64,000 bases of DNA, taken from the NCBI GenBank assembly GCA_003252395.1, contig QKEL01000014.1, forward strand, positions 1-64,000. The letters run 5' to 3'. Position 1 is the first letter of the stretch. Each line of letters starts with the position of its first letter. A model generated the notes under the pieces. It searched no databases and was not told the origin of the DNA. It saw only the letters and a program-made list of their open reading frames with translations. The position numbers and the translations under genes are program-made. Below are positions 8,273 through 45,455 of this stretch, piece by piece. The stretch comes from Spirochaetales bacterium. GTDB taxonomy: Bacteria > Spirochaetota > Spirochaetia > Treponematales > Treponemataceae.

Positions 8273-9971
<1,699 letters not shown>

Positions 9972-10002
9972 AAAAAGGTACAAAACCAGCCTGAAAGCTG
10001 TA

Positions 10003-10030
10003 GGGTCGCCCCGTCGGGGCGGCCCTTTTT
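10003..10030 (+). terminator. groL rho-independent terminator, copy 1
   Basis: GGGTCGCCCC-gtc-GGGGCGGCCC with one G-U pair, followed by TTTTT, 32 bp after the groL stop codon. Confidence 0.85.
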
Positions 10031-10056
10031 CGTTTAACGGCAGCCATTCCGCCGGA

Positions 10057-10563
10057 GGCGGAACGCCGTCGCTCGTACCGTCAGGGACGGGCTTTCAATC
10101 CATTCCGCTCGGCGCCAGAAAATGCGACCGAAGGGCGTATTTTCTGATAGGGTGGCATGGGCGGAATGGACGGGATGTACTAAAAAAAGGTACAAAACCA
10201 GCCTGAAAGCTGTAGGGTCGCCCCGTCGGGGCGGCCCTTTTTCGTTTAACGGCAGCCATTCCGCCGGAGGCGGAACGCCGTCGCCCGTACCGTCGGGGAC
10301 GGGCTTTCAATCCATTCCGCTCGGCGCCAGAAAATGCGACCGAAGGGCGTATTTTCTGATAGGGTGGCACGCCGCCTGTGAGTTCCCGTTGCGGGAACGA
10401 GCATACAATCACATTCCAATCGGCGCCTGGAACACGGGACCGAAGGTCACGTGTTCCAGATGGGCGGAACGCCGGCAGTGAGTTCCCGATCAGGGAACGA
10501 ACATACAATCATATTCCGCTCGGCGCCTGAAACCCGTAACCGCAGGGCACGGGTTTCTGATAG
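10057..10563. repeat. array of four variable-stem hairpin modules
   Basis: Modules begin at 10057, 10269, 10363 and 10463, each opening GGYGGMACGCCG. Each holds a hairpin A, then a conserved middle (CAATC, ATTCC, TCGGCGCC), then a hairpin B and GATAGG or similar. Stem sequences differ between modules while pairing is kept. Hairpin A: GCCCGT/ACGGGC in module 2, GTTCCCG/CGGGAAC in module 3, GTTCCC/GGGAAC in module 4. Hairpin B: AGAAAAT/ATTTTCT, TGGAACACG/CGTGTTCCA and GAAACCCGT/ACGGGTTTC, with a common CC-loop-GG tip. No reading frame accounts for it. Confidence 0.75.
10215..10242 (+). terminator. groL terminator, copy 2
   Basis: Exact second copy of the groL terminator, carried by the 212-bp duplication. 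Confidence 0.8.
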
Positions 10564-10568
10564 GACGG

Positions 10569-10627
10569 GATGTACTAAAAACTTCGTTTTTAGTACATCT
10601 TGGAGTTTCACCAAGAGTGAAACTCCA
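10569..10627. repeat. paired perfect hairpins after the groL array
   Basis: GATGTACTAAAAAC-TTC-GTTTTTAGTACATC (14 bp) is followed after one base by TGGAGTTTCAC-CAAGA-GTGAAACTCCA (11 bp). The left arm repeats the end of groL including its stop codon, a third partial copy of the gene terminus. Confidence 0.8.
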
Positions 10628-10660
10628 CGGTGTTTGCCGCAAGGTTGCCAATTAATCTGC

Positions 10661-10688
10661 AAGGTTGCCCGGAAGGGCAACCTTTTTT
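10661..10688 (+). terminator. strong rho-independent terminator
   Basis: AAGGTTGCCC-ggaa-GGGCAACCTT followed by further T residues. It closes the groL region before the convergent HD-GYP gene and may be the original outer terminator. Confidence 0.8.
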
Positions 10689-10745
10689 CGTTTAAAGGCC
10701 ACCCAGCGTGCCTGGGGTAAGACGAAGAAGGCGGAACGGCGGGGC

Positions 10746-12368
10746 TTATCCGCGGTAACGGGACGCTATCTCGTTGAATTCGGCATGGATATCCAGGAAC
10801 AATTCCACGAGTTCGGGGTCAAAGTGGGATCCGCTTCCCTGTTCGATGATATGGATCACTTCGTCGTGGGGAATCGGGGCCTTGTAGGGACGCTCCGAGA
10901 TACACGCGTCGTACACGTCGGCCACGGCCATGATACGCGCGCTCATGGGAATGGCGGGACCGGAAAGGCCGTGGGGGTAGCCCGAGCCGTCCCAGCGCTC
11001 ATGGTGGAACTCCGCGATTTCGCAGGCGTAATCGAGAAAGGGGTCTTCCGGCGCGTACTCGCGGGTGCGCTTAATGGCATCGCTGCCGAAAAGGACGTGG
11101 CGGCGCATGGTCATTTCCTCCTCGGGCGTGAGGCGGCCGGGTTTGAGAAGGATGCTGTCCGGAATGGCGATTTTTCCGATGTCATGGAGGGGCGCCGAAC
11201 GCCATATTAACTCCCGCGCCTCCGCGGAGTAGCCGACCCGTTCGCCGATACGTTCTACCATGGCCTTCACGTACAATTTCGTGCGTTGAATGTGGGCCCC
11301 GGTATCGGAATCGCGGTATTCGGAAAGGATTGCCATGCTGTTGATGGTCGCGTCGCGCATGGCCGAAAGGTCCTTCAATTGCCTTCGCAGCGTTCTTTCC
11401 ATCGCCTCCCGCTCGGTCAGGTCCTGAAAGACCGTTATATAGAGGTTCCCCAAAACGCGCATGGCGATATCGACATGGCGGGTCTCTCCGTCGGAACGGG
11501 CAACGAGGTAGAGGCGGTTTGGTGTGGATCCGTCGCCTTCCTTCGCGGCGACGACATCGGCGTTCCAGAGGGCTTCCGCCTTCCCGCGATACTCGGCGTC
11601 GGGATAGGCTTTTCTTTTCCAGTCGCCTATTTGGGGAATGTCTTCCAGGCGATACCCAAAGGTTTCGGTAAACCGCCGATTAACGTACCGAACGCGGCCG
11701 GAGGAGTCGACGATTCCGACGGGTATCGGAATGAAGTCAAGCGTATCCCGGTAATGCCGTTCGTTCGTTTTGAGTTCCACGATCCGCCGCTGATTGTTGA
11801 GCGCGTAGGACAATATTTTCCCCGCCAACACGGTCGCGAGGGGATAGAGAACGAGAATGGAAGGCCCCAGCGTTCGCAGGGTGGGCATAACGCGTTCCCT
11901 GGGAAGTAAAAAGAGGAGCAGCACCATAAAAACGTGAACGATGAGACCGAAGGCGTAGAGAGACAGGGATTCCGGCGGGCGGGACTCGGCGCGGCTTTTT
12001 CTCCCGAACGCCAAGCCTACCGCGGAAGACATGAGAATTACGGAAACCCCCATGAGCATGCCGTCGCCCCCCAGGTAAACGCGGAGGGCGAGCGGGGGAA
12101 GAACGGAGATCGCCGCGGCCAGAGGGCCGAAAAAGAGTGACGCGAGGCTTATCATGACGGAGCGGCCGTCAAATATGAGCCCGTTGCCGAGGTTCATGGG
12201 CTTGAGCATGCCGATAACCGCGGCAAGCGCGAAAAGGAAGCCTTGCAGGACCCGCGATAACCGCGGGGTACTGCCAAAACGGTCATGGATAAAGCCGGAA
12301 ACCACCGAGAGGGAGACGAGAAGCGACAGATTGAGTATGAGATCGAGATAGATCATCGTGCTTTTCAT
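10746..12368 (-). CDS. membrane-bound PAS/HD-GYP phosphodiesterase
   Basis: Residues 1-200 contain about six hydrophobic segments of the 5TM-5TMR-LYT sensor type. A PAS domain follows (about 215-325), then an HD-GYP domain to the C-terminus. The latter has HDIGK and the HHERWDGSGYP signature, so it should hydrolyse cyclic di-GMP in response to a membrane or cytoplasmic signal. The ATG used gives 540 residues. A TTG 27 bp upstream would add nine residues. Neither has a good ribosome-binding site, so the start is uncertain. The gene is convergent with the groL repeat region. Confidence 0.88.
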   Translation of the reverse strand: MKSTMIYLDLILNLSLLVSLSVVSGFIHDRFGSTPRLSRVLQGFLFALAAVIGMLKPMNLGNGLIFDGRSVMISLASLFFGPLAAAISVLPPLALRVYLGGDGMLMGVSVILMSSAVGLAFGRKSRAESRPPESLSLYAFGLIVHVFMVLLLFLLPRERVMPTLRTLGPSILVLYPLATVLAGKILSYALNNQRRIVELKTNERHYRDTLDFIPIPVGIVDSSGRVRYVNRRFTETFGYRLEDIPQIGDWKRKAYPDAEYRGKAEALWNADVVAAKEGDGSTPNRLYLVARSDGETRHVDIAMRVLGNLYITVFQDLTEREAMERTLRRQLKDLSAMRDATINSMAILSEYRDSDTGAHIQRTKLYVKAMVERIGERVGYSAEARELIWRSAPLHDIGKIAIPDSILLKPGRLTPEEEMTMRRHVLFGSDAIKRTREYAPEDPFLDYACEIAEFHHERWDGSGYPHGLSGPAIPMSARIMAVADVYDACISERPYKAPIPHDEVIHIIEQGSGSHFDPELVELFLDIHAEFNEIASRYRG

Positions 12369-12469
12369 AGTAATGAAGGGGAGAGCCGGGCTCAAGACCC
12401 TGAGCAGGGAAAGAGCCGGTTACCGCCGATAAACCGCTTTCCCGCGGGAACGCGCGCAAGGGGCAATCG

Positions 12470-13824: not shown

Positions 13825-13998
13825 CGTGGAGTGTGCGCTGACTGTTTCCCGCCATGGAGAAAATCGCGTCGCGCTCAGCTGCCGTGGAGTGTGCGCTGAC
13901 TGTTTCCCGCCGTGGAGAAAATCGCGCAGCGTTCAACTACCGTGGAGTGTGCGCTGACTGTTTCCCGCCGTGGAGAAAATCGCGTCGCGATTTTCTCC
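13825..13998. repeat. 58-bp tandem repeat, three copies
   Basis: Copies start at 13825, 13883 and 13941, each opening CGTGGAGTGTGCGCTGACTG and containing CGTGGAGAAAATCGCG. The third copy runs on into the reverse complement of that segment, making a hairpin. The unit is not a multiple of three and no protein is suggested. Confidence 0.9.
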
Positions 13999-39292: not shown

Positions 39293-39304
39293 GTAAGGTT
39301 CCTC

Positions 39305-39390
39305 CTAGAAACTGCGCCAATCAATGATTGGCTTGTTGGTTCAATGCCTAGAAACTGCGCCAATCAATGATTGGCTTGTTGGTTCAATGC
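39305..39390 (-). repeat. 43-bp perfect tandem duplication in the CBS leader
   Basis: Copies at 39305-39347 and 39348-39390 are identical. Each contains the palindrome GCCAATCA-a-TGATTGGC (39316-39332 and 39359-39375). The inner copy ends in the ribosome-binding site of the CBS gene. A TATAAT on the minus strand (39420-39415) may be the promoter, with no good -35. Confidence 0.85.
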
Positions 39391-44855: not shown

Positions 44856-45455
44856 TTATTCCTCCGTAGCCGCTTCGGCAGCGGGCTTAGCCTTGGGCGC
44901 TGCGGCTTTCTTCGCGGCAGGCTTTTTGGCGGCGGGTTTCTTGGCCTCGCCTTCGGCGGCGGGCTTAGCCGCGGACGCAGTGGCTTTCTTCGCGGCAGGC
45001 TTCTTCGCGGCGGGTTTTTTAGCCTCGGCCTCGGAGGGAGCCGCCTTCTCGGCAGCGGGTTTCTTCGCCTTCTTGTCGGCCTTTTCCTCGGTCTCGAGCT
45101 TGTAGTCAACGAGTTCGAGGATCGCGACCTCGGCGGCGTCGCCCTCGCGGAAACCGAGTTTCAGAACGCGGGTATATCCGCCGGCGCGGTCTTTCATGCG
45201 GGGACCGATATCGGTAAAAAGCTTCGCGAGAATCGCGGGATCGGCGATAAACCGCGCGACCTGTCGGCGGTTATGGACGGTGTCGACCTTGGCGCGGGTA
45301 ATGAGCTTCTCGGCGGTGCGTCGGACTTCCAGCGCCTTGGGCTGCGTAGTGGTTACCCGTTCGAACTTGAACAGGGAGGTCACCATGTTGCGATGCATTG
45401 CGCGGCGGTGAGAAGCGTTGCGCGAAAGCGGATTAAAGCCATTCTTATGCTTCAT
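44856..45455 (-). CDS. rplQ: ribosomal protein L17 with Lys/Ala/Pro tail
   Basis: 50S protein near the exit tunnel. Residues 1-118 are standard L17 ([47 protein letters not shown]). Residues 120-199 are an extension made of repeated [13 protein letters not shown]-like units, like the tail of histone H1. The ATG lies inside the end of rpoA (11-bp overlap). Tail function is unknown; RNA or DNA binding by charge is inferred. Confidence 0.95.

What the first reader, a model, noticed from the sequence alone, without database searches (positions are those of the whole stretch)
10057..10563. Repeat modules whose hairpin stems vary while pairing is kept
Seen: four modules with conserved linkers (GGCGGAACGCCG, CAATC, ATTCC, TCGGCGCC) but different hairpin stems, for example AGAAAAT/ATTTTCT, TGGAACACG/CGTGTTCCA and GAAACCCGT/ACGGGTTTC at the same position. 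Compensatory change of whole stems with fixed linkers is the mark of selection on structure. It does not fit CRISPR (repeats too long, no cas genes) or a protein-coding repeat. Inference: a mobile or expanding structured element, BIME-like in plan, or a set of small RNAs with variable stems.
Basis: partly seen in the sequence, partly recalled or inferred. Interest (0 to 1): 0.7.

Follow-up and report, generated by a model that had tools for sequence, protein, structure and literature searches.

The report
Spirochaete gene-tail double-hairpin repeats
Behind the groEL gene of a spirochaete lies a small array of DNA modules that fold into two hairpins; relatives of these modules sit behind tRNA and other genes in related spirochaetes, sometimes flanked by a forward and a backward copy of the host gene's own end, which looks like an undescribed family of short structured repeats.

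Summary
In detail: four modules 3' of groEL, each hairpin H1 - conserved linker - hairpin H2. Two are copies of one 212-bp duplication carrying the groEL tail and terminator, so three are independent. H2 covaries (5 of 14 pairs changed on both sides). The linker pattern matches nothing else in this genome, but relatives occur in other spirochaetes of the order. Among matches to one exact linker form in a named collection of 84,980 species, strong H1+H2 was seen in 6 of 7 spirochaete and 0 of 23 other matches. In 8 of 31 loci the element is followed by a copy of the upstream gene's 3' end, and several show the layout gene tail - terminator - antisense tail - element - tail, at groEL here and in another family and at tRNA genes. 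A TD-2-like element abuts the array. No RAYT is linked; no protein partner was found. Best reading: an undescribed family of short palindromic elements that expand at gene 3' ends; mobility is inferred, and tandem duplication alone is not excluded. 'Structured expanding element, BIME-like in plan' is partly supported; RAYT and small-RNA roles are not shown.

The parts
8298..9971 (+). groEL (Cpn60), host gene whose 3' end is duplicated
   Evidence: ORF; Pfam PF00118 E=1.5e-81
9922..9971 (+). groEL tail T, original copy (9922-9939 is the sense partner of the antisense copies; 9938-9971 is repeated downstream)
10002..10026 (+). terminator-like hairpin behind groEL, first copy
10041..10061 (+). 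X1: antisense copy of the groEL tail (21 nt at 90%; arm of 18 nt with one mismatch)
   Evidence: inverted repeat I2
10071..10092 (+). M1 hairpin H1
10096..10116 (+). M1 conserved linker CAATCCATTCCGCTCGGCGCC
10117..10145 (+). M1 hairpin H2 (GAA loop)
10150..10183 (+). second copy of the groEL tail, right of M1
   Evidence: D1; 10150-10183, 100%
10214..10238 (+). terminator-like hairpin, second copy
10253..10273 (+). X2: second antisense groEL-tail copy
   Evidence: I3
10283..10357 (+). M2: H1 10283-10304, linker 10308-10328, H2 10329-10357; copy of M1
10382..10458 (+). M3: H1 10382-10398, linker 10406-10427, H2 10428-10458
10482..10558 (+). M4: H1 10482-10498, linker 10506-10527, H2 10528-10558 (GCA loop)
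10563..10581 (+). third copy of the groEL 3' end GGACGGGATGTACTAAAAA, right of M4
   Evidence: (D5)
10568..10658 (-). TD-2-like element (RF03162, 35.2 bits, below gathering 48.7); the only match at E<=0.1 in this genome among the 76 of 111 candidates scored
10661..10684 (+). terminator-like hairpin downstream of the TD-2-like element

Best explanation
The modules belong to an undescribed family of short (about 70-100 bp) structured interspersed repeats of the Treponema-containing order: hairpin H1 with a variable stem, a conserved unpaired linker (about CAATCCATTCCnnTCGGCnn), and hairpin H2 with a variable stem, often an internal G.A mismatch and a GNA-type loop. At roughly a quarter to a third of the loci seen they have settled and expanded behind the 3' ends of genes (tRNAs, groEL), in the layout gene tail - terminator - antisense tail copy - element - tail copy. 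Shown: the structure, its covariation, the spirochaete restriction of the one linker form tested, and the recurrent layout at unrelated genes. Inferred: they are non-autonomous mobile or copy-number-expanding palindromes; an unknown enzyme or the replication machinery acts on the hairpins; the antisense arm arises by fold-back synthesis near the terminator hairpin; the copy of tail plus terminator keeps the host gene end working. In this window one insertion at groEL was amplified in tandem next to a TD-2-like element.
For: H2 covariation in the window and in 17 rows from nine other genomes (3 of 7 pairs changed on both sides, covariation score 0.189 against a shuffled mean of 0.067). H1: 18 hand-anchored elements, 14 different 5' arms, 99% of inner pairs formed against a mean of 56% (maximum 73%) when 3' arms are dealt anew (the arms were picked as hairpins, which favours pairing). 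Spirochaete restriction: summed H1+H2 score >=28 (threshold set after seeing the scores) in 6 of 7 spirochaete matches and 0 of 23 others. Direct copy (>=14 nt) of the right flank found upstream in 10 of 31 loci against 6 of 862 cross-locus pairs; by my reading it is a gene or tRNA 3' end in 8 of the 10. Inverted arms upstream, score >=15, in 6 of 29 loci against 0 of 143 control windows; >=13 in 8 of 29 against 3 of 143. Same layout at groEL of another family, tRNA-Gly, tRNA-Lys and tRNA-Thr.
Against: No transposase, recombinase or RAYT among the neighbours scanned (9 in the window; 10 of 38 listed ORFs at other loci). No further copy in this genome by the linker pattern, so no dispersal is seen in this species. 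No occupied/unoccupied pair of an otherwise identical site was found; at groEL in the genus I read 8 of 11 relatives and only G003 keeps half a module. In one search, 23 of 31 loci show no gene-tail copy. Exact inverted matches between left and right flanks are only modestly enriched (>=12 nt in 5 of 31 against 7 of 862, >=14 nt in 1 of 31 against 3 of 862; score >=10 in 7 of 25 against 18 of 600). At score >=9 one search shows little (12 of 29 against 49 of 143). Tandem duplication alone could explain the arrays. H2 of the shorter elements is weak: over all 17 elements it was reached by <=10 of 200 shuffles in 8; one internal pair fails in 16 of 17 rows and another in 7 of 17.
Confidence: 0.57

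Rival explanations
1. A structured RNA working at mRNA or tRNA-precursor 3' ends (3'-end stabiliser, processing signal or small RNA); the conserved unpaired linker between two hairpins is a protein- or RNA-binding site.
For: A conserved single-stranded linker flanked by covarying stems is the usual look of a functional RNA; 11 of 18 H1 loops begin with G and end with A; elements often sit behind genes.
Against: M1 and M2 lie after a terminator-like hairpin, as do, read by eye, the elements at G106 groEL, G047 tRNA-Lys and G044 tRNA-Thr and the second G048 array. No promoter-like site in 9900-10760. No Rfam match at gathering score to the modules, only sub-threshold ones.
Confidence: 0.2
2. No mobility: replication slippage and fold-back synthesis at terminator hairpins amplify whatever lies behind a gene; the 'family' is an old intergenic hairpin inherited vertically at a few loci.
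For: Repeated units include gene tail and terminator (212-bp duplication; G048 arrays; the last unit of the second G048 array lacks a tail copy, as tandem duplication would leave it).
Against: The same linker and hairpins occur behind unrelated genes (groEL, tRNA-Gly, tRNA-Lys, tRNA-Thr) and inside other repeats in several families of the order.
Confidence: 0.18
3. REP/BIME propagated by a RAYT.
For: Palindromic, extragenic, tandem; one Y1-like protein in the genome.
Against: The Y1 gene is on another contig, flanked by GGGTCAGACCC/GGGTCTGACCC palindromes, without modules in the stretch read.
Confidence: 0.03
4. Relics of integrative elements: the tail copies are attachment-site repeats and the modules are folded recombination sites, attC-like.
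For: The tRNA 3'-end direct repeat (26 nt at tRNA-Gly) resembles attachment-site repeats of integrative elements (recalled).
Against: No recombinase among the neighbours scanned; no attC consensus noticed by eye (recalled consensus, no tool test).
Confidence: 0.02

Closest known systems
TD-2 RNA (Rfam RF03162, clan CL00124)
   Same: Multi-hairpin element found in Treponema relatives, variable stems, placed directly at gene 3' ends (stop codon of an open frame of >=100 codons within -5..+15 of the outer hairpin in 12 of 26 loci on one side, 0 of 26 on the other; my tally); a TD-2-like element abuts the array.
   Different: Different linkers and hairpin order; no TD-2 match to M1-M4 themselves; copies of the gene end are not general in TD-2 loci (direct >=10 nt in 3 of 26 against 8 of 650).
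REP/BIME elements with RAYT (enterobacteria; recalled)
   Same: Extragenic palindromes near terminators, tandem arrays.
   Different: Two unequal hairpins joined by a conserved unpaired linker; stems vary between copies; no linked RAYT.
tRNA-targeting integrative elements (recalled)
   Same: Direct repeat of the tRNA 3' end on the far side of the insert.
   Different: Units of only about 66-212 bp in the arrays read, no integrase seen, plus an antisense tail copy.

Membership tests
TD-2 RNA (RF03162) | M1-M4 match the family model | tested here: not met
   at E<=10 the TD-2 hits are 10568-10658 (-) and 10568-10642 (+) only, none on M1-M4
TD-2 RNA (RF03162) | stretch 10568-10658 reaches gathering score 48.7 | tested here: not met
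   35.2 bits, E=0.0022
REP/BIME with RAYT | linked RAYT (Y1 transposase) flanked by the same palindromes | tested here: not met
REP/BIME with RAYT | many dispersed extragenic copies in the genome | tested here: not met
   linker pattern: 4 matches in this genome, all in the array; more diverged copies could be missed
CRISPR array | identical short repeats, unique spacers, cas genes | tested here: not met
   Pfam scan of 9 proteins between 3938 and 16373 shows no Cas protein
Known Rfam family | any gathering-threshold match in the window | tested here: not met
   0 matches
Mobile element with target-site duplication | direct repeat of the target flanking the element | tested here: inconclusive
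   10 of 31 loci against 6 of 862 control pairs; tandem duplication not excluded
Mobile element with target-site duplication | unoccupied versus occupied allele at one site | tested here: inconclusive
   groEL 3' ends of 8 of 11 genus relatives read; too diverged to define an unoccupied site
Structured RNA | covarying stems with conserved unpaired nucleotides | tested here: met
Structured RNA | transcription | not testable with these tools
   no expression data

The most novel reading that the evidence does not exclude
A class of tiny spirochaete elements finds or makes its insertion site by matching: a copy carries an antisense copy of the 3' end of the gene behind which it sits, like a guide or target-derived terminal repeat, next to a conserved two-hairpin scaffold, and leaves a regenerated sense tail and terminator. 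The arm is host-derived, so it differs from gene to gene while the scaffold stays the same: a target-matching integration principle without a precedent known to me.
Probability: 0.17. Interest if true: 0.82.

Novelty: new variant of a known kind. Interest (0 to 1): 0.5.

Why it matters
If right, it adds a family of interspersed structured repeats to the spirochaetes, for which I recall few. The sense-plus-antisense copies of the host gene's tail at unrelated genes are an unusual footprint that makes the origin of gene-end hairpins directly testable. It also suggests that the Rfam TD-2 model is drawn on the strand opposite to its upstream gene, which matters for anyone looking for its function.

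Tried and rejected
RAYT linkage: one Y1 match in this genome, on another contig, flanked by unrelated palindromes; rejected. In G048 three TD-2 matches lie within about 8 kb of Y1 genes, but the two Y1 genes read there are flanked by other palindromes; dropped.

More copies in this genome: DNA search with the array (one search scored only 12 of 28 candidates here), short linker with up to 2 mismatches (350 matches against 175 in the reversed control; of the three perfect matches outside the array I read L002 and L003 as coding sequence, and L004 lacks the CAATC part) and the gapped linker pattern gave no further module.

RNAalifold on the mixed alignment A2 gave no consensus pairs, because stem lengths differ; alignments A3 and A4 were not used for counts. 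I therefore counted H2 on an equal-length subset, which leaves out elements with other H2 lengths (the window's own among them), and H1 by hand-anchoring on the loop. The H1 loop rule is not universal (11 of 18 begin G and end A). In one search, 16 elements were listed; over the 15 with arms long enough H1 was 97% own against 48-49% cross-paired and H2 83-86% own against 50-52% cross-paired.

Gene-end copies in TD-2 loci were tested and not found to be general (direct >=10 nt in 3 of 26 against 8 of 650; inverted in 2 of 26 against 9 of 650). One search used a faulty pattern (6 elements) and is replaced. labels its two sides wrongly for hits on the minus strand; the 12-of-26 and 0-of-26 tallies are my re-reading of that output, with 4 of 30 loci left out as truncated. 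In one search the 0 in the reversed control overstates specificity: of 31 contexts printed I judged 16 to be elements by eye and 15 not, many of these apparently coding. The spirochaete records carry, at most of the matches, the same sequences as some G genomes, so the two searches are not independent. Viral contigs: 8 stretches, none with a summed hairpin score of 28. A covariance model was not built. Literature: (search listings only) showed nothing on this element; the paper I recall as the source of TD-2 is not held; of PMC7160235 I saw passages only (0 occurrences of TD-1 and TD-2).

Full report
What is there. Just 3' of groEL (8298-9971; Cpn60) and before a convergent HD-domain gene (10746-12395, minus strand), positions 10041-10558 hold four modules. 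Each has a hairpin H1, a conserved linker CAATC..ATTCC..TCGGCGCC and a second, longer hairpin H2. M1 and M2 belong to a 212-bp tandem duplication (9938-10149 / 10150-10361, 99%) that also carries the groEL tail and terminator; the 100-nt stretches 10330-10429 and 10430-10529, which run from M2 to M4, are 76% alike. The groEL 3' end GGACGGGATGTACTAAAAA recurs a third time at 10563-10581 and overlaps a TD-2-like element at 10568-10658 (minus strand; Rfam RF03162, 35.2 bits against a gathering score of 48.7, E=0.0022). That is the only TD-2 match in this genome at E<=0.1 among the 76 of 111 candidates scored.

Is it structure? On the four rows, H2 forms 88.9% of 54 cells in register; the six slid versions reach at most 51.9%. 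Five of 14 pairs change on both sides (M1 and M2 are near copies, so this rests on three sequences). Single-strand folds of the modules have z from -2.3 to -2.7 on the plus strand and -1.2 to -4.0 on the minus strand, so the strand is not decided. No Rfam family matches at gathering score in the whole window.

Relatives. A DNA search over 59 genomes found half a module at the same place in a sister species (G003) and hits in another family, which led to linker searches. CAATCCATTCC followed by GCGACGC matched in 8 of 291 genomes and marked elements in f4 and f5 genomes; other matches are coding or unclear. The gapped pattern AATCN{1,2}ATTCCNNTCGGC matched 35 places in 27 of 194 genomes, with 0 in the reversed control; in this genome it matches exactly the four modules. 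Of 31 contexts printed I judged 16 to be true elements and 15 not. In the named collection of 84,980 species, CAATCCATTCCNNTCGGCAA occurs in 29 stretches (30 matches). Seven matches lie in 6 spirochaete records, among them Treponema sp. UBA12037 and SZUA-426. Summed H1+H2 score reached 28 in 6 of these 7 and in 0 of the other 23 matches.

Covariation beyond the window. In 17 equal-length rows from nine other genomes (G038, G044, G047, G048, G091, G106, G108, G117, G176; five of them give two or three rows), 3 of 7 H2 pairs change on both sides, covariation score 0.189 against a shuffled mean of 0.067 and slid values up to 0.092. Pairing is 78.2%, because one internal position is unpaired in 16 of 17 rows and another in 7 of 17. 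For H1, 18 hand-anchored elements (the window's M2-M4 included) have 14 different 5' arms yet 99% of inner pairs form; dealing the 3' arms anew gives a mean of 56% and a maximum of 73%. By shuffling of each flank, H1 was reached by <=10 of 200 shuffles in 15 of 17 elements and H2 in 8 of 17.

Where they sit. A layout recurs: gene tail (T) - terminator - antisense tail (X) - element (E) - T. Window: the groEL tail 9922-9939 and its antisense copy within 10041-10061 (18 nt, one mismatch), terminator-like hairpin 10002-10026 between. G106, another family: a groEL tail (read by its likeness to the window's groEL), terminator, antisense tail (17-nt arm, one mismatch), element, then a 71-nt exact copy of tail and terminator. 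G048: two arrays of four units behind two tRNA-Gly genes, with a 26-nt tRNA-end copy and 12-13-nt antisense matches; the last unit of the second array lacks the tail copy. G044 tRNA-Thr: 26-nt antisense arm with one mismatch and a 61-nt tail copy. The arm is also seen at G038 tRNA-Thr and tRNA-Gly, G047 tRNA-Lys and, with a tRNA-like tail that ARAGORN does not call, at G044 C11.

Over all loci: a direct copy (>=14 nt) of the right flank lies upstream in 10 of 31 against 6 of 862 cross-locus pairs; in 8 of the 10 I read it as a gene or tRNA 3' end, in 2 as a repeat within the element cluster. Inverted arms upstream of the element have score >=15 in 6 of 29 against 0 of 143 windows and >=13 in 8 of 29 against 3 of 143; at >=9 there is little difference (12 of 29 against 49 of 143). 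This scan misses the two G048 tRNA-Gly arrays, whose arm abuts the element, and one counted arm (G048 tRNA-Met) is not a gene tail that I can recognise. Exact inverted matches between left and right flanks are only modestly enriched. Most loci of genus g23, several of them beside ACCACGGAG-type repeats, show neither copy. Several loci come from one genome, so counts of loci are not counts of independent events.

groEL ends in the genus. Of 11 relatives matched the groEL end was printed for 8 (not for G002, G004, G011). In G005, G006 and G007, and less clearly G010, the groEL stop codon lies in a hairpin followed by a GAGAAA...TTTCTC hairpin, and in G005-G007 by a second copy of the groEL end; G001, G003 and G009 lack this and G008 is unclear (my reading). 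So gene-end copying is not confined to the CAATC family.

How it may work. Shown: structure, covariation, restriction of the linker form tested, layout. Inferred: an unknown factor, or replication itself, acts on the hairpins; the antisense arm could come from fold-back synthesis near the terminator; the duplicated tail plus terminator would keep the host gene end working. I found no transposase or recombinase among 9 window proteins and 10 of 38 ORFs listed at other loci. The one Y1 match of this genome is elsewhere, with other palindromes.

Verdict. Real, structured, and not found described in six literature searches, in the passages of one paper or in Rfam at gathering score; closest in habit to TD-2 and to REP-type repeats. 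Whether it moves, or is only amplified in place, remains open.

Noticed in passing
L113-L142 (TD-2 loci of relatives): TD-2 elements start right at the stop codon of an upstream gene on one side (12 of 26 loci, 0 of 26 on the other, my tally); the Rfam model is drawn on the strand opposite to that gene.
   Followed up: partly
window 13825-13998: 58-nt unit repeated three times (90%), the last copy ending in a fold-back GGAGAAAATCGCG/CGCGATTTTCTCC.
   Followed up: no
window 39304-39389: Exact 43-nt tandem duplication containing CCAATCAATGATTGG.
   Followed up: no
window 44873-45028: 78-nt repeat (86%) that looks like a Lys/Ala-rich coding repeat on the minus strand (not translated).
   Followed up: no
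L105, L109, L093, L103 (genus g23): Elements preceded by ACCACGGAGACACGGAG-like sequence, in L109, L093 and L105 followed by a sequence like its inverse (L109, L093 and L105 judged by eye).
   Followed up: no
L082 10880-11000: Another hairpin-rich repeat close to tRNA-Arg (11101-11176), with pieces resembling the tRNA end in both orientations.
   Followed up: no
genome G056: 28 Y1-transposase matches in one 2.3-Mb genome of the order; the next highest of the 59 genomes searched has 6.
   Followed up: no
genus groEL 3' ends, L160, L161, L163: groEL stop codon buried in a hairpin whose 3' arm follows the codon change (TAT/ATA versus TAC/GTA), followed by a second copy of the groEL end.
   Followed up: partly
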